64,000 nt of DNA from a virus (IMGVR_UViG_3300042691_042003:182082-246081); one strand, 5' to 3'. Counted from the stretch's first letter, positions 3,743 through 43,806 are shown. A program made the numbers and translations. The notes: generated from the sequence alone by a model not told the origin.

Positions 3743-4536
3743 AAAACTTAAAAACTTACGATAGCTGGTTAAACGAATCAACAGTTAATCCTATTGTTGA
3801 GGATCTACTTACTCGAGCAGAACCTACTATTCAACAGATGGTTAATAAATCTAGAGAGGCTTATGTAAAACAATACGAGCGTGAATGGACTAAATACGAT
3901 GAAACGATTACTAGATTAATCATAATCTCTAATATGGTTCGATCTTTTGAAATTTACACGAAACATAATGATAGACTCGTTAACTTTACAGTAAAAGGAT
4001 CTCCAAAAGGATCTATGGTTATCTCTTCACAAATTGATAGAGATGATGTACCTCATTATTTAGATACTGAGGTAATTTATGCAGGAGGTTATAATATACA
4101 GGCTCTTCATTATCGTTATATTACGAAAACTAATCTAACTAAAACTGGAGCTGATACTAAAACCAAAGAGATAGGAGAAAAAATCAAGAAGCTTTCTAAA
4201 CTAGAAAAGATCAATAAAGAAATCGAAGGTTATCAAGTCAGAATAAAGGATAATGAAGAGAATATTGCTAAAAATTCGGTTTTATCTGACGAAGAAATAA
4301 AGGATATTCTTCGAAAGGGAGAGTATGGTAGTACTATTGATACTACATGGGAGGATGTTGTTCGGAACAAAGGACATTACGATAGCAGAGAAGAATTTGA
4401 AACTTCTCAAAAGCAATACATCGCTGATAAGATAGTATTTTGGAAAAGGGTAAATATTGAATGGAAAATTGAGAATAATACAGCTCTCAAAAAGAATATT
4501 GACAAATTAAATAAGAAGTTAGAGACACTAATATGA
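3739..4536 (+). CDS. coiled-coil protein with capsid-targeting-type leader
   Basis: 265 residues, start overlapping the previous stop (ATGA). The leader MKNLKTYDSWLNE followed by S is identical in its first 14 residues to the next gene product. The mature part has a middle region rich in beta-type residues and a lysine/glutamate-rich coiled-coil C-terminal half (about 140-265). No catalytic motif is seen. The matching leader on two unrelated proteins implies a transferable targeting tag. Confidence 0.6.
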   Translation: MKNLKTYDSWLNESTVNPIVEDLLTRAEPTIQQMVNKSREAYVKQYEREWTKYDETITRLIIISNMVRSFEIYTKHNDRLVNFTVKGSPKGSMVISSQIDRDDVPHYLDTEVIYAGGYNIQALHYRYITKTNLTKTGADTKTKEIGEKIKKLSKLEKINKEIEGYQVRIKDNEENIAKNSVLSDEEIKDILRKGEYGSTIDTTWEDVVRNKGHYDSREEFETSQKQYIADKIVFWKRVNIEWKIENNTALKKNIDKLNKKLETLI

Positions 4537-26968: not shown

Positions 26969-27054
26969 AATAATCTCTGGGTGACTGTGGCACATACCTT
27001 AGCCTTAAACCTCGAACCTGGGACCGAGATGGTTGGTAGCAATTTGAGATTATT
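26969..27054 (+). ncRNA. tRNA-sized element closed by a perfect 9-bp stem
   Basis: AATAATCTC (26969-26977) pairs with GAGATTATT (27046-27054). The 86-base span is tRNA-sized, with a D-arm-like segment and a CTTAAAC string resembling a Leu(TAA) loop, but no normal T-arm. It could be a degenerate tRNA or another structured RNA. Confidence 0.35.
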
Positions 27055-27056
27055 AC

Positions 27057-27146
27057 AGTCAGGTAGCAGAATAGGAAAATGCTATACTTAAGCAGAGCAA
27101 GCTGGGTAATTGCTCTTTACAGGTTCGAATCCTGTCCTGACTACCA
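27057..27146 (+). ncRNA. tRNA-like element 1 (non-canonical middle)
   Basis: Acceptor AGTCAGG pairs with CCTGACT; T-arm ACAGG-TTCGAAT-CCTGT; discriminator A and encoded CCA. Length is normal for class II (87 plus CCA). The D-arm GCA...TGC is plausible, but the next 17 bases do not form an anticodon stem; instead AGAGCAA and TTGCTCT make a 7-bp stem around GCTGGGTAA. Anticodon not assignable. Confidence 0.55.
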
Positions 27147-27150
27147 TATT

Positions 27151-27291
27151 ATGAGAAGCAAAACTTTTCAACGAATTCTAGATAAAATGGAAAGAGATCC
27201 GTGGTATATCAAGCTCAAAAGGTCTTTTGTTGTTGAATTGTTTGTTATTCGTAGATTAGGAATTATTAAATATATCAAACATAGAATATAG
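27151..27291 (+). CDS. basic hypothetical protein, 46 aa
   Basis: ATG 27151 is the first start after the tRNA-like element. Product is Lys/Arg-rich with an ERDPWYIKLKRSFVVELFVI core. Enclosed between two tRNA-like elements. Not recognised. Confidence 0.5.
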   Translation: MRSKTFQRILDKMERDPWYIKLKRSFVVELFVIRRLGIIKYIKHRI

Positions 27292-27401
27292 TCAGGATGC
27301 GTAATGGTATACGCTAGTAACATATGGCATTGGTCTACGTAGTACTCTAACTATGTGCATATGAAGAATAGAAAATGCAGGTTCGAATCCTGTCCTGACT
27401 A
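27290..27401 (+). ncRNA. tRNA-like element 2 (112 bases)
   Basis: Same acceptor pair AGTCAGG/CCTGACT, T-arm GCAGG-TTCGAAT-CCTGT and a good D-arm GCGT-AATGGTAT-ACGC. Between D-arm and T-arm there are about 60 bases instead of 22-40, with nested stems CATATG/CATATG and ACGTAG/CTATGT. It ends one base into, and overlaps, the preceding gene. No anticodon assignable. Confidence 0.5.
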
Positions 27402-27415
27402 CAAAAAATAAATTT

Positions 27416-27554
27416 ATGGAAGAAGATGAACGATGTCCAAATTGTGGTGAGTGTGAAAACATTCATACAAATTTTGATTGGAGTGAACCTTGATAGACCT
27501 GTAGAGGAATATCTGTGTAATGAATGTGGAATTTATTTTTTACCAAAACAATAA
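27416..27554 (+). pseudogene. small zinc-ribbon gene interrupted by a frameshift
   Basis: The first frame gives MEEDERCPNCGECENI... and stops at TGA 27491-27493 after 25 codons. Another frame continues DRPVEEYLCNECGIYFLPKQ to TAA 27552-27554. Together they give a CxxC...CxxC zinc-ribbon of about 45 residues. No obvious slippery heptamer. Could be a broken gene, a sequencing error or a recoding event. Confidence 0.5.
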
Positions 27555-27557
27555 AAT

Positions 27558-27677
27558 AGTCAGGTGGCGGAATTGGTTAGACGCTACTGTGGGGCGATAC
27601 CACTCTGTTAAAAACAGCATAAGTTTTTACAATGAGGTACCAGTTGTAAAATGCAGGTTCGAGTCCTGTCCTGACTA
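27558..27677 (+). ncRNA. tRNA-like element 3 (120 bases, Leu-type D-arm)
   Basis: Acceptor AGTCAGG/CCTGACT, Leu-like D-arm GGCGGAATTGGTTAGACGC, T-arm GCAGG-TTCGAGT-CCTGT. The middle is about 35 bases too long. CTGT and ACAG could form the anticodon stem, closing a 24-base loop ending TTAAAA like a Leu(TAA) loop; the variable arm is long (TTTTACAA/TTGTAAAA). Confidence 0.5.
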
Positions 27678-27685
27678 CTAAAATC
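27664..27685 (+). repeat. 22-bp direct repeat, left copy
   Basis: The 3' end of tRNA-like element 3 plus flank, TCCTGTCCTGACTACTAAAA followed by TC, recurs exactly at 27938-27959. The two copies flank the 77-aa gene. Confidence 0.85.
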
Positions 27686-27692
27686 TAAAATT

Positions 27693-27926
27693 ATGAAAAA
27701 ACAAGAAACTCTTGAAGAGGCATCTTGGAAATATAATCCATTAAAAAAACTTGATGGTGAGTTTATAAGAGAGGCTTTCATTAAAGGTGCTCAATGGCAA
27801 TCTGAAAGAATGTATACTTATTATGAACTAAGACAGATTGCATATAATGCTTATTGTAAAGGTCATTTAGATAATCCTACAGAAAATGAATTTAATCTTT
27901 GGGTACAACAATATAAAAAGAAATAA
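27693..27926 (+). CDS. conserved phage-type hypothetical, 77 aa
   Basis: EAFIKGAQWQSERMYTYYEL is a motif common in small phage proteins (FxxGAxWQ). Flanked by exact 22-bp repeats derived from a tRNA 3' end, suggesting insertion as a unit. Function unknown. Confidence 0.6.
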   Translation: MKKQETLEEASWKYNPLKKLDGEFIREAFIKGAQWQSERMYTYYELRQIAYNAYCKGHLDNPTENEFNLWVQQYKKK

Positions 27927-27937
27927 ATAGAAAAGAA

Positions 27938-27959
27938 TCCTGTCCTGACTACTAAAATC
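27938..27959 (+). repeat. 22-bp direct repeat, right copy (orphan tRNA 3' end)
   Basis: Exact copy of 27664-27685, consisting of part of a T-arm and an acceptor strand with no 5' part upstream. The next gene starts at the base after it. Confidence 0.85.
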
Positions 27960-29270
27960 ATGAAGAATCATCTATCAATAAGTCCTATAGACGGCAGATA
28001 TCACGACCAAACTCAATTTTTACACAAGTACTTTTCTGAATATGCTTTAGTTAAAAACCGAGTAAGAGTAGAAGTTGAATATCTCATTAAGCTCGTAGAT
28101 AAGATTCTTCCTAATCGATTAACTAATGTAGACAGGAATTATCTAAGACTTATATATAAAAATTTTAGTGAAGAAGATTTTCAAAGAATCAAGAGAATCG
28201 AAAACGAAATTAAACACGACGTAAAAGCAGTAGAAATATTTCTAAGAGAAAGAGTTTTCGAAGATCTTAAATGTTATGTTCATTTCGGTTTAACTTCACA
28301 AGATGTAAATAGTATTTCTTATTCTCTGGCTTTAAGAGAATGGTATAGTGAAAGTGGATTTACAGAAATCTACAATTTGAAAGAGCAAATCGAATCTCTT
28401 TCTGAACGTTGGTGGAATATTCCAATGGTTTCTAGAACTCATGGTCAGCTTGCTTCTCCTACTCGTTTAGGTAAAGAAATGAAAGTTTTCTCTTATCGAT
28501 TAGAACGAAAAGAAGAAATCATATTCACATTTGCAAAGTTCGGTGGAGCCGTTGGAAATGCAAATGCTCACTATGCAGCTTTTCCTAATGTCGATTGGGA
28601 AGAATTCTTCGAGCAATTTGTAAATTCATTCAATCTAGAAAGATCCGAATGGACAACACAAATCGATTCATATGATAGCTATGCAGAAAGATTCAATCGT
28701 CTTTCAGAAATTTGCACTATCCTTCTCGACTTTTCTAGAGACATTTGGCAGTATATTTCTTTAGATTATCTAAAGCTTAGAGTCGAAGAACATGAGGTCG
28801 GATCTTCAACGATGCCCCATAAAGTAAATCCAATTAACTTTGAAAATGCAGAAGGAAATCTAGGAATTGCAATTGCTCTGTTCCGACATTTTTCCGAAAA
28901 GCTTCCTGTAAGTAGACTACAAAGAGATCTATCGGATTCAACAGTTCTACGAAATATAGGAGTTCCTATCGCACATATGCAAATAGCTATCAATCAACTT
29001 TCTGAAGGACTTGAAAAGCTAGAAGCTAATGAAGAGAAGATTCGTTTAGATCTGTATTCTGATTGGTCGATCATTACTGAAGGTATTCAAACAATTCTTA
29101 GAATTCACGGATTTGATGATGCTTATGATCGATTGAAGACTTTCTCTAGAGGCAAGAGTCCTCTTTCTCTTTATGATGTTCATAAATTTATTGATTCTTT
29201 AGAAATTCCAGAGCATATAAATAAAGAACTTAAATTAATTACTCCTGAAAATTATATCGGTCGTAATTAA
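27960..29270 (+). CDS. purB: adenylosuccinate lyase
   Basis: 436 residues, near full length for the family. Opens with LSISPIDGRY, typical of PurB. HFGLTSQDVNS and RTHGQLASPTRLGKE are the two family helices, and SSTMPHKVNPINFENAEGN is the fumarase/aspartase-superfamily signature loop. It converts adenylosuccinate to AMP and SAICAR to AICAR in purine synthesis. Inside the tRNA region with no other purine gene visible here; a metabolic gene that may raise ATP/dATP supply. Confidence 0.93.
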   Translation: MKNHLSISPIDGRYHDQTQFLHKYFSEYALVKNRVRVEVEYLIKLVDKILPNRLTNVDRNYLRLIYKNFSEEDFQRIKRIENEIKHDVKAVEIFLRERVFEDLKCYVHFGLTSQDVNSISYSLALREWYSESGFTEIYNLKEQIESLSERWWNIPMVSRTHGQLASPTRLGKEMKVFSYRLERKEEIIFTFAKFGGAVGNANAHYAAFPNVDWEEFFEQFVNSFNLERSEWTTQIDSYDSYAERFNRLSEICTILLDFSRDIWQYISLDYLKLRVEEHEVGSSTMPHKVNPINFENAEGNLGIAIALFRHFSEKLPVSRLQRDLSDSTVLRNIGVPIAHMQIAINQLSEGLEKLEANEEKIRLDLYSDWSIITEGIQTILRIHGFDDAYDRLKTFSRGKSPLSLYDVHKFIDSLEIPEHINKELKLITPENYIGRN

Positions 29271-29275
29271 CACAT

Positions 29276-29344
29276 GCGAGGTAAGGAAATGGTATCCGCT
29301 AGGGCTCATAACCCTTGATTCTCAGTTCGAATCTGAGCCTCGCT
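29276..29344 (+). tRNA. tRNA with CAT anticodon (Met or Ile2), second copy
   Basis: Acceptor GCGAGGT/GCCTCGC, D-arm GGA...TCC, anticodon stem AGGG/CCCT with loop CTCATAA (anticodon 29307-29309), T-arm CTCAG-TTCGAAT-CTGAG. One T-T mismatch at the base of the anticodon stem. CCA not encoded. Differs in sequence from the copy at 22469, so the two may have different identities. Confidence 0.82.
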
Positions 29345-29347
29345 ACT

Positions 29348-29438
29348 AGTCAGGTGGCGGAATTGGTTAGACGCAAAAATAGAATTAGTAAGGTCGTAAC
29401 CCCTTTACAATTTACAGGTTCGAATCCTGTCCTGACTG
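29348..29438 (+). ncRNA. tRNA-like element 4 (91 bases)
   Basis: Acceptor AGTCAGG/CCTGACT and the same Leu-type D-arm as element 3, T-arm ACAGG-TTCGAAT-CCTGT. The expected anticodon stem does not pair; AAGG/CCTT closes an 8-base loop TCGTAACC further 3'. Starts three bases after the tRNA-Met, so co-transcribed. Confidence 0.5.
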
Positions 29439-29440
29439 CT

Positions 29441-29540
29441 GATCAGTTTTCTGGTGGTAACGGTCGAAAGACTTCTGTAATCAAAATCCAAGAATTGCTC
29501 CTCTGGTTCTTGGGCTAAATGAGGAAAGAAAACCAGAACT
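29441..29540 (+). other. structured spacer without a gene
   Basis: TTCTGGT (29449-29455) pairs with ACCAGAA (29532-29538), enclosing GTC-GAAA-GAC and CCAAGAA/TTCTTGG hairpins. No coding sequence and no tRNA arms. May be an RNA of its own or a tRNA-processing spacer. Confidence 0.3.
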
Positions 29541-29613
29541 ACGCTGTTAGTTTAATTGCATAAAACCCGGCCCTTCTAAGGCTGATTTACAGGTTGGAGT
29601 CCTGTACGGCGTA
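29541..29613 (+). tRNA. tRNA-Arg (TCT)
   Basis: Acceptor ACGCTGT/ACGGCGT, D-arm GTTT/AAAC, anticodon stem CGGCC/GGCTG with loop CTTCTAA (anticodon 29575-29577), T-arm ACAGG-TTGGAGT-CCTGT. The T-loop has G where C56 is expected. AGA is a favoured Arg codon in this AT-rich genome. Confidence 0.85.
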
Positions 29614-29668
29614 CTAATCGAACTTTTATTTTAATAAAATTAGAATATATAATAAAATAAAGGTTCGA

Positions 29669-30490
29669 ATGGAAAAATTAGATATAAGCGTTTATAATTG
29701 GAAATATATCCAAGAAAAACATAATAATGGAGCTTTCCTAAAAGATTTAGGTGTTACAAGGAAAGCTATAGAACAAGCTATAGAAAAAGGTCTTTTTGTA
29801 AAAATAAAAAATACAAGGAAGTGGTCAGAAGAAGAAAAAATAGAAATTTCAAAAAGACGAAAAAAATGGCTATCGGAAAATCCTGAAAAACATCCTTGGA
29901 AAAAAAATACTAAATTTAAATCTATTCCTTGTGAATTTTTAAAAAATAATCTTAAAGAATTAAACATAGAATTTTTTGAAGAAGTAACTATTAGTAAAGA
30001 AAAAAATTATTCAGCAGATATATTAATACCTTCAAAAAATTTAATAATTGAAGTTAACGGAAATCAACATTATGATAAATTAGGAAAACTTATACCATAT
30101 TATCAAGAAAGGCATGATTTTATTTCTGCTTTAGGATGGAAGATCTTAGAAATTCATTATTCATTAGCATTTAATATAGATTTTTGTAAAACTTTAATAA
30201 TTAAAGAACCGGAAAAATCCGAAATTTTACCATTTTATAAAAAAGAAAAAAGAAAAAATGTTAAATATGGTAATCGAGAAGATTACTTAAATGCTAAAAG
30301 ATTAGAATATGAAGAAAAAAATAAAGAAAAGATAATTTTAATACAAAATTCAAATATTGAATTTTCTAATTTTGGATGGGTTTCTAAAGTTTCTAAAATT
30401 TTAAATATAAAAACTCAGAAAGTTTCATTATGGATGAAAACTTTCATGCCGGATTTTTATGAAAATCAATGTTTTAAAAAGAAAAAATAA
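29669..30490 (+). CDS. Vsr/EDxHD-type homing endonuclease-like protein
   Basis: 273 residues. Helix-turn-helix-like N-terminus (KDLGVTRKAIEQAIEKG) and a central nuclease-like core: SADILIPSKNLIIEVNGNQH, then YYQERHDFI and GWKILEIHYS, the pattern of the Vsr/PD-(D/E)xK branch that includes EDxHD homing enzymes. A basic C-terminus with SKVSKILNIKTQKVSLWMK is a likely second DNA reader. Its ATG lies within GGTTCGAATGG, a T-loop-like remnant, and a tRNA-like hairpin follows its stop, so it probably inserted in tRNA DNA. Confidence 0.7.
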   Translation: MEKLDISVYNWKYIQEKHNNGAFLKDLGVTRKAIEQAIEKGLFVKIKNTRKWSEEEKIEISKRRKKWLSENPEKHPWKKNTKFKSIPCEFLKNNLKELNIEFFEEVTISKEKNYSADILIPSKNLIIEVNGNQHYDKLGKLIPYYQERHDFISALGWKILEIHYSLAFNIDFCKTLIIKEPEKSEILPFYKKEKRKNVKYGNREDYLNAKRLEYEEKNKEKIILIQNSNIEFSNFGWVSKVSKILNIKTQKVSLWMKTFMPDFYENQCFKKKK

Positions 30491-30491
30491 A

Positions 30492-30524
30492 TACTTCTAT
30501 TTGGTTCGACTCCAAATGGAAGTA
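30492..30524 (+). ncRNA. tRNA acceptor/T-arm minihelix
   Basis: A 13-bp hairpin, TACTTCTATTTGG paired with CCAAATGGAAGTA (one T-G wobble) around a canonical T-loop TTCGACT. It equals a tRNA acceptor plus T-arm with no D or anticodon arm. Located between the endonuclease and the synthetase-like gene. Confidence 0.5.
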
Positions 30525-30548: not shown

Positions 30549-31391
30549 ATGTACAAAACAAAAACCTATCACGTACTTGTTCAAAAGATGCGTGAATTTT
30601 TTTTATCTAAAGGTTTTATTGAGGTACCTACGCAATCAAGACTTTCTATACTTGCTGCTTGCGAAAATCCTCATTCAATCACAACTTTCAATTATCAAGG
30701 AGAAGTTTGGCCTCTTCCACAAACTGGACAAATGTGGTTAGAATATGAACTTCTCAAAAATCCAGAATGGCCAGGTTGCTTCTGTATTTCTACATCTTAC
30801 CGTCAAGAGAAGAATCCAATTCCTGGTCGTCATGAACTTATTTTTCCAATGTTCGAATTTGAATCTCGAGGAACAATGGAAGATATGTTACTTTTAGAAG
30901 AGGAGCTGTTAAATCATTTAGGATTTGATGCTCCTTTTGAAGCAAAATACGACGACCTTTGTCAAGAATATGGAGGAGTTCCTATTCTTGAAAACGAACA
31001 CGAGCAAAGAATGTGGGATGAAAAGGGTTCAGTAGTTTCTCTTCAACATTTCCCTCTAAGAACAAATCCTTTTTGGAATATGAAGCATAACGATAACGGA
31101 ATCTTCAATAAGGTAGATGTTATCCTCTATGGTCAAGAAACTATCGGTTCTGCCGAACGTAGTTGTGACGTAGAAAAGATGAGAGAAATGTTTTACACAA
31201 TTGAAGGAGGTAAATATTGTGAAAAACTTTTCGAACTTTTCGGTAAAGACCGAGTTGAAGCCGAACTTGAAGAATTCTTCAAACATGATTTTTTCCCTCG
31301 TTTCGGTGGAGGAATTGGAATGACTCGTCTTGCAAGAGCATATGAGCATCTTAAGAAAGATGTGCTAGTTGCTGATGCACTAACAGCTTAA
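30549..31391 (+). CDS. class II aminoacyl-tRNA-synthetase-like core (AsxRS/AsnA-like)
   Basis: 280 residues; start at 30549 because upstream frame runs through the minihelix. Only the class II catalytic core is present: motif 2 region CISTSYRQEKNPIPGRHELI then FPMFEFES, and motif 3 GGGIGMTRLARA. No N-terminal anticodon-binding domain. This matches paralogues of Asp/Asn-tRNA synthetases, some of which make asparagine (archaeal AsnA) and others of which are of unknown use. Could charge a tRNA-like RNA or make a free amino acid product. Confidence 0.82.
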   Translation: MYKTKTYHVLVQKMREFFLSKGFIEVPTQSRLSILAACENPHSITTFNYQGEVWPLPQTGQMWLEYELLKNPEWPGCFCISTSYRQEKNPIPGRHELIFPMFEFESRGTMEDMLLLEEELLNHLGFDAPFEAKYDDLCQEYGGVPILENEHEQRMWDEKGSVVSLQHFPLRTNPFWNMKHNDNGIFNKVDVILYGQETIGSAERSCDVEKMREMFYTIEGGKYCEKLFELFGKDRVEAELEEFFKHDFFPRFGGGIGMTRLARAYEHLKKDVLVADALTA

Positions 31392-43408: not shown

Positions 43409-43806
43409 GGGCCCGACTTGGAATTGATTTACGATACATTTTTTTCGTATGCAAGCAGAGTTAGTTGGAAACTCTTAAATAACCTAACAGAATTTTAAAT
43501 GGCGAATCTTTCGTTAATGCAGACGGCAAAGTGTTCTATATGGACACTACTGCTGTTTCTTATGATGAGCCTGTCTTAATGGCAGCCTAATCAGTCGTGC
43601 GGTAACAGCCGATCCTTAAAACAAAGTTACAACCTGCGGTTCCGTTAGAGGTGCTACCCATTTAAGTGAACCTCCCACAATTGCAAGTGACAATGGAAAA
43701 ATAGGAACTTGATATTTTGTTTATTTAGAAAAATAAACTAAGCTTGTGAATGAGTGCATTAAAATGATTGGGAAAGACATGGGTTCGAATCCCATCGGGT
43801 CCACCA
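43409..43806 (+). ncRNA. ssrA: transfer-messenger RNA (tmRNA)
   Basis: 398 bases. The tRNA-like domain is formed by 5' GGGCCCG and 3' CGGGTCC (one G-T pair), T-arm ATGGG-TTCGAAT-CCCAT, discriminator A and encoded CCA. The tag frame runs from GGC 43501 to TAA 43588-43590: 29 residues beginning GESFVNADGK and ending DEPVLMAA. The Gly-Glu start and hydrophobic-Ala-Ala end match bacterial degradation tags, but it is two to three times the usual length. Pseudoknot-like GC-rich stretches follow (43590-43700). tmRNA rescues stalled ribosomes with SmpB, which is not seen here. Confidence 0.9.

What the first reader, a model, noticed from the sequence alone, without database searches (positions are those of the whole stretch)
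26969..30524. Family of tRNA-like elements with normal acceptor and T-arm but abnormal middles
Four elements (27057, 27290, 27558, 29348) share AGTCAGG/CCTGACT and an ACAGG-TTCGAAT-CCTGT-type T-arm, yet are 87-120 bases long, and none has a canonical anticodon arm. Element 3 keeps TTAAAA at the end of an oversized loop, as if sequence were inserted in the anticodon loop. They alternate with tiny genes. They could be intron-bearing tRNAs, degenerate decoys or a new tRNA-derived RNA class.
Basis: seen in the sequence. Interest (0 to 1): 0.75.

Follow-up and report, generated by a model that had tools for sequence, protein, structure and literature searches.

The report
Phage tRNA-framed RNAs with swappable cores
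Hundreds of phages, probably of Bacteroidota bacteria, carry genes that look like the top half of a transfer RNA with the decoding arm replaced by one of hundreds of different folded RNA inserts; related phages swap these inserts at the same site, which suggests an unrecognised RNA toolkit used in the contest with their hosts.

Summary
Four elements (27057, 27290, 27558, 29348) share a tRNA-Leu-like frame (7-bp acceptor, D-arm, T-arm) but no anticodon arm. IMG/VR holds well over 100 contigs with this frame; 413 distinct copies fall into 270 unrelated classes of middle (Chao1 about 785). In 84,980 cellular species genomes the gapped frame occurs on only three small contigs. Middles carry 33 compensatory base pairs against 14±3 expected; acceptor and variable-arm stems covary too. 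Of 131 classes with a clean D-arm, none has a canonical or intron-compatible anticodon arm. Related phages with about 80-99% identical flanks carry unrelated middles in the same, never empty, slot.

The intron and degenerate-tRNA readings fail; a new tRNA-derived RNA class is supported. Best guess: the tRNA top half is a processing and stability scaffold, and the hypervariable core is an effector or decoy under arms-race selection. Structure and swapping are shown from sequence; expression, target and function are not. T4's orphan rnaC (perfect T-arm, no anticodon arm) is the nearest annotated analogue. No description was found in the papers searched.

The parts
27057..27146 (+). Element 1 (class C). 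Acceptor 27057-27063/27136-27142, D-stem 27066-27068/27080-27082, middle 27083-27118 with hairpin 27095-27100/27110-27115 around loop GCTGGGTAA, T-arm 27119-27135, followed by ACCA.
   Evidence: 14 further distinct sequences with the same core, hairpin re-paired in the window copy (GAGCAA/TTGCTC vs GTTGAA/TTCAAC)
27290..27401 (+). Element 2. Acceptor 27290-27296/27394-27400, D-arm 27299-27314, middle 27315-27376 with no relative found, T-arm 27377-27393.
   Evidence: not called by ARAGORN or Rfam
27558..27677 (+). Element 3 (class B). Leu-type D-arm; conserved motif 27589-27603; long variable arm 27625-27632/27644-27651; T-arm 27653-27669; acceptor 3' strand 27670-27676.
   Evidence: 99.5% of cells paired, 7 of 8 variable-arm pairs doubly compensated, acceptor replaced with pairing kept in L222 (ATTTAGA/TCTAAAT)
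29348..29438 (+). Element 4 (class D). Same 27-nt 5' part as element 3; middle 29375-29413 with hairpin 29390-29393/29402-29405; T-arm 29414-29430; acceptor 3' strand 29431-29437; discriminator G.
27934..27959 (+). Orphan 3' end of an element (AATCCTGTCCTGACTAC + TAAAATC); its last 22 nt repeat 27664-27685, so the 77-aa gene 27693-27926 is flanked by a 22-nt direct repeat.
27151..27291 (+). 46-aa gene (MRSKTFQRILDKMERDPW...) directly after element 1; homologues follow elements of different core classes in other phages.
27693..27926 (+). 77-aa gene directly after element 3.

Best explanation
What it is (shown by sequence, about 0.9): a family of virus-specific, tRNA-Leu/Ser-derived, non-decoding RNA genes. 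The tRNA top half (acceptor, T-arm, D-arm, tertiary-contact nucleotides U8-A14, A15-U48, G18, T-loop) is nearly constant. The anticodon arm, and in about 6% of cases also the D-loop, is replaced by one of several hundred unrelated structured modules that recombine with frames and with each other and are swapped allelically at fixed genomic slots. How it works (inferred, about 0.4): the gene is transcribed from its own or the operon's promoter; the frame is matured by host RNase P and 3' processing and protects the RNA as a tRNA-like particle; the core is an effector RNA that binds or decoys a host factor, most likely a defence component. Diversifying selection by varying hosts would explain the turnover of cores while the frame stays fixed. 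The confidence given is for the whole statement including mechanism.
For: Elbow nucleotides conserved outside the search pattern: T8 .96, A14 .87, A15 .84, T48 .82, G18 .87, C74 .98. Generic finder: 310 non-canonical tRNA-like hits vs 0 on complemented DNA. 270 core classes in 413 elements. Covariation in frame and core. Allelic swaps: one slot with 5 or more alleles and 1-3 RNAs, six further slots with 2-3 alleles. Same core in a different (Ser-like) frame, L257. D-loop modules shared across cores. Co-directional with genes, 1080 vs 147. Bacteroidota -7 box TAnnTTTG enriched 10-20 nt upstream, 15 vs about 2-3 per bin. U(-1) 83%, and C74 as in these phages' ordinary tRNA genes.
Against: No expression data. 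No target found: no antisense signal to the local DNA (35 vs 34 at 11 nt), no dedicated partner gene. Folding energy of cores is only modestly low (mean z -0.77 vs -0.34 for downstream DNA; not different from the reverse complement, p=0.10). The near-constant frame could partly reflect recent horizontal spread and gene conversion. 'Arms race' is inferred from diversity and swapping only.
Confidence: 0.45

Rival explanations
1. Processing punctuation: the elements are cut out by RNase P and 3' nucleases to separate mRNAs of the small genes between them; the core is filler.
For: They fit tightly between genes (often 4-12 nt after a stop, 14-31 nt before a start), are co-directional and carry U(-1)/C74.
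Against: Filler would not be conserved in unrelated phages, covary or be swapped as intact modules. In the tail-module slot the promoter sits directly in front of the element.
Confidence: 0.12
2. Aminoacyl carriers: LeuRS or SerRS, which do not read the anticodon, charge these RNAs, and the amino acid is used outside the ribosome or sequestered.
For: Leu-type D-arm, A15-U48, A73 in 88%, and a Ser-like frame in L257: both parents are class II tRNAs whose synthetases do not need the anticodon (established knowledge).
Against: Does not explain the hypervariable cores; some members have other D-arms or discriminator G, as element 4 does; no transferase partner gene found.
Confidence: 0.12
3. DNA-level cassette or recombination sites (attC-like): conserved ends with a variable middle, alternating with small genes.
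For: Orphan 3' fragment giving a 22-nt direct repeat around a small gene; swapping at slots; module shuffling.
Against: RNA features beyond the ends (elbow contacts, T-loop, C74, covarying stems, promoter) are maintained; no shared recombinase gene next to the elements; acceptors are replaced with pairing kept.
Confidence: 0.1
4. Degenerate tRNA genes drifting after duplication.
For: Phage tRNA arrays do accumulate odd genes; ordinary tRNAs lie nearby in 110 of 264 loci.
Against: Frame almost invariant while cores are unrelated; cores recur and covary; no empty slot among related phages.
Confidence: 0.04
5. tRNAs interrupted by an intron in the anticodon loop.
For: Class B keeps TAA-like letters before ACAGC; frames come from class II tRNAs.
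Against: 0 of 131 classes intron-compatible, U33 at background, positions 27-31 pair no more often than shuffled; no intron family in Rfam.
Confidence: 0.02

Closest known systems
Bacterial tRNA-Leu / tRNA-Ser (class II tRNA, Rfam RF00005)
   Same: Acceptor, T-arm, D-arm (TGGCGGAATTGGTTAGACGC), elbow contacts, A73/C74, U(-1), sometimes a long variable arm.
   Different: No anticodon stem-loop; core of variable length, unrelated between classes; virus-specific acceptor.
T4 rnaC / rnaD (species 1 and 2 stable RNAs)
   Same: rnaC: phage RNA beside a tRNA cluster, perfect T-arm CCGGG-TTCGAAT-CCCGG, arm-like hairpin before it, no anticodon arm; function unknown (PMC9697503).
   Different: rnaC's acceptor pairs imperfectly and no D-arm was seen; rnaD has no T-loop; not known as a hypervariable swapped family.
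tmRNA tRNA-like domain
   Same: tRNA head with the anticodon arm replaced by another RNA domain.
   Different: No tag reading frame, no G3-U70 pair, about a quarter of the length; the window encodes a separate true tmRNA (43409-43806).
tRNA-like modules of bacterial Y RNAs (YrlA) and viral tRNA-like structures
   Same: tRNA mimicry used for something other than decoding (recalled, not tested).
   Different: Those are single RNAs or genome ends, not a modular gene family.

Membership tests
Decoding tRNA (RF00005) | 7-bp acceptor and 5-bp T-arm with TTCRANN loop | tested here: met
Decoding tRNA (RF00005) | D-arm and elbow contacts (8-14, 15-48, G18) | tested here: met
Decoding tRNA (RF00005) | 5-bp anticodon stem with 7-nt loop and U33 | tested here: not met
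   0 of 131 classes; the Rfam model skips the arm. A few members outside that set do have one (e.g. a Lys-like copy in L136)
Intron-bearing tRNA | anticodon arm restored by removing one internal stretch | tested here: not met
tmRNA | G3-U70 acceptor pair and tag reading frame | tested here: not met
   pair 3-70 is U-A in almost all; only the separate gene at 43409 matches RF00023
T4 rnaC-like stable RNA | canonical T-arm without anticodon arm | tested here: met
T4 rnaC-like stable RNA | shared sequence or acceptor frame | tested here: not met
   rnaC's acceptor only partly pairs and has different letters
Integron attC site | integrase gene with the array | tested here: inconclusive
   no recurrent recombinase within 3 kb; whole genomes not checked
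Known Rfam RNA family for the core | core reaches a family's gathering score | tested here: not met
   only tRNA and tmRNA hits

The most novel reading that the evidence does not exclude
A natural library of tRNA-scaffolded effector RNAs: phages display hundreds of interchangeable structured RNA modules on a constant tRNA top half, each countering a different host factor, and trade them as alleles. This would be an RNA counterpart of variable anti-defence protein loci.
Probability: 0.4. Interest if true: 0.95.

Novelty: categorically new. Interest (0 to 1): 0.86.

Why it matters
tRNA genes in phages are normally read as codon-usage helpers or as resistant to anticodon nucleases. Here genes that annotation programs call tRNA-Leu or 'undetermined' are something else: a large, swappable, structured RNA family without anticodons. 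It gives a concrete route to a decades-old loose end (stable non-tRNA RNAs in phage tRNA clusters, T4 rnaC/rnaD) and, if the cores act on hosts, a rich source of natural RNA inhibitors and a natural precedent for the tRNA-scaffold trick used in biotechnology.

Tried and rejected
Intron model: tested and rejected. Antisense guide to nearby genes: no excess. Dedicated partner gene or type III toxin-antitoxin-like pair: the same small gene follows elements of different classes. Universal motif in cores: no strong one, only weak enrichments such as GTTCGA. Host RNA being mimicked: a class C pattern gave one chance hit in 395 Bacteroidia genomes, without the hairpin. Empty slots showing insertion of whole elements: none found, smallest gap 75 nt. 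Known RNA families: none. GenBank phages: no good copy of the frame. AsnRS-like protein lacking an anticodon domain (30549-31391) as charging enzyme: its GenBank relatives are in cyanophages and huge uncultured phages, no link to the elements seen, not pursued. My first element-finder script had an indexing bug and found nothing; corrected. Literature searches found no description; most subscription papers are outside that library.

Full report
THE OBSERVATION. The window (G000:C1:182082-246081, the last 64 kb of a 246-kb virus record) encodes tail fibres, an NAD-dependent ligase, PurB, a tmRNA and four ordinary tRNAs called by ARAGORN. Between 27057 and 29438 four elements share AGTCAGG/CCTGACT and a T-arm. 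Rfam's tRNA model reaches three of them but leaves out the anticodon arm, replacing 13-17 model positions by 27-58 unaligned bases. Element 2 is called by neither ARAGORN nor Rfam.

IT IS A LARGE VIRAL FAMILY. The exact 27-nt 5' part of elements 3 and 4 occurs in 104 stretches of IMG/VR, and what follows it differs wildly until the same T-arm and acceptor return. In each of those three genomes all copies sit on one small contig, as expected of misbinned phage DNA. In 394 other Bacteroidia genomes the T-arm/acceptor sequence is absent, so it is not a host tRNA. Elements of one genome lie on one strand, up to 14 per genome. No GenBank phage record matched the frame well. The sample was chosen by the AGTCAGG acceptor; a generic finder shows the same architecture with other acceptors too, 310 non-canonical hits against none in complemented DNA.

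CONSTANT TOP, VARIABLE BOTTOM. In 371 distinct elements the information content is near 2 bits through the acceptor and T-arm and falls to about zero in the middle. Positions not in the search pattern carry the marks of a real tRNA elbow: T8 .96, A14 .87, A15 .84 with T48 .82, G18 .87. A73 (.88) and C74 (.98) follow, and position -1 is T in 83%; the phages' own canonical tRNAs show the same C74 and mostly T(-1). The commonest D-arm is that of tRNA-Leu; one copy of a core sits in a Ser-like frame (L257). In 131 core classes with a clean D-arm there is no canonical anticodon arm and none that a single excision would restore; the position of U33 is T in 25%, the background. A few members, such as a Lys-like copy in L136, do have a normal anticodon arm, so frames seem to be exchanged with real tRNA genes.

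THE CORES ARE STRUCTURED MODULES. The 413 elements fall into 270 core classes, 203 seen once (Chao1 about 785). Classes recur nearly unchanged in unrelated flanks, e.g. class C of element 1 in 15 distinct sequences. Over 28 classes with enough variation, stems contain 33 compensatory pairs against 14.1 +/- 3.0 expected, maximum 21 in 60 simulations. In class B (element 3) 7 of 8 variable-arm pairs are doubly compensated, and one copy has replaced its acceptor with pairing kept. Class D (element 4) shows the same on a smaller scale. Class K6 supports two helices that cross, an H-type pseudoknot (six sequences, so the second helix is provisional). Single-sequence folding energies are only modestly low. 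The D-loop is a second variable site in 12 of 209 elements, and D-loop inserts are shared between different cores.

ALLELIC SWAPPING. Comparing 400-bp flanks, 83 slots were found in two or more loci; seven of them hold two to five unrelated cores although flanks are about 80-99% identical, and no slot is empty. The clearest lies in a tail-gene module: nine contigs share an upstream gene, a Bacteroidota-type -7 box (TATATTTG) starting 12 bases before the element, and a downstream gene starting 31 bases after the last element, yet carry seven different core classes in arrays of one to three RNAs. Short shared ends could in principle mislead assemblers, but alleles recur in independent contigs and each contig has its own flank variants. 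The same small gene (46 aa in the window, 27151-27291) follows elements of at least five classes in different phages.

HOW IT MOST LIKELY WORKS. Shown from sequence: gene family, frame, missing anticodon arm, covarying cores, swapping, promoter motif. Inferred: the tRNA top half gives 5' and 3' processing and stability; the core is the working part. Diversity without drift, recurrence, and allele replacement in an always-filled slot are what one expects if varying hosts select the core. I therefore favour an effector or decoy RNA aimed at host factors, probably defence, at about 0.4; the class itself I hold at about 0.9. A search for complementarity to neighbouring DNA and for partner genes found nothing, so the target is unknown.

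COMPARISON. T4 encodes two stable RNAs of unknown function beside its tRNA cluster. I find that rnaC ends in a perfect T-arm preceded by an arm-like hairpin and has no anticodon arm, while its acceptor pairs only partly and rnaD has no T-loop. T4 RNAC and RNAD are late RNAs validated by northern blot, function unknown (PMC9697503), and a convergent change in rnaD arose when a T4-like phage adapted to a semi-permissive host (PMC12685909). These are analogues, not shown to be homologues. tmRNA shares the head-plus-other-domain plan but not G3-U70, tag or size. No paper in the held library describes this family; that is weak evidence of novelty.

LIMITS.

Noticed in passing
window 30492-30524: A bare minihelix ACTTCTA-TTTGG-TTCGACT-CCAAA-TGGAAGT followed by ACT: acceptor and T-arm fused with no D or anticodon arm, right after an endonuclease-like gene (29669-30490) and before an AsnRS-like gene.
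   Followed up: partly
window 26969-27054: An element closed by a perfect 9-bp stem AATAATCTC/GAGATTATT, without T-arm, directly before element 1; no relative in fetched loci and no Rfam match.
   Followed up: partly
window 27664-27685 and 27938-27959: A 22-nt direct repeat (element 3' end plus TAAAATC) brackets a 77-aa gene, as if the gene was brought in by recombination at the element's 3' end.
   Followed up: partly
L051 about 4146-4413 (-), also L205, L223, L242: A conserved RNA-like stretch of about 215 nt (ATGAGTAAGAGATACTCA ... CTCAAGGTGGGG) between tRNA-like elements in four phages; no Rfam family.
   Followed up: partly
window 30549-31391: AsnRS-like catalytic core (PF00152) without an anticodon-binding domain; nearest GenBank relatives are Prochlorococcus phage 'tRNA ligase' genes at about 55% identity.
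   Followed up: partly
window 43409-43806; L152 5724-6218: Phage-encoded tmRNA genes (RF00023) in genomes that also carry the elements.
   Followed up: no
L011 505-608, L034 5883-5985, L112 842-945 (-): A recurrent 103-104-nt tRNA-like gene with acceptor CCATTCT/AGAATGG or a variant and a greatly lengthened anticodon arm; a different frame from the AGTCAGG family.
   Followed up: no
L131 5303-5469, L159 836-991, L015 3170-3319: 150-167-nt tRNA-like genes with acceptor TGTAAGG or similar and a shared core piece (GGGTTGACCACAAAGCCGGC or a variant).
   Followed up: no
L221 (Tenacibaculum phage pT24) 7286-8243: A cultured Bacteroidota phage annotated with tRNA-Sup and two tRNA-Undet genes, with further unexplained stretches between them; possible laboratory model.
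   Followed up: partly
L268 1109-1247 (-), T4 rnaC: T4's orphan stable RNA rnaC ends in a perfect tRNA T-arm with an arm-like hairpin before it and no anticodon arm.
   Followed up: partly
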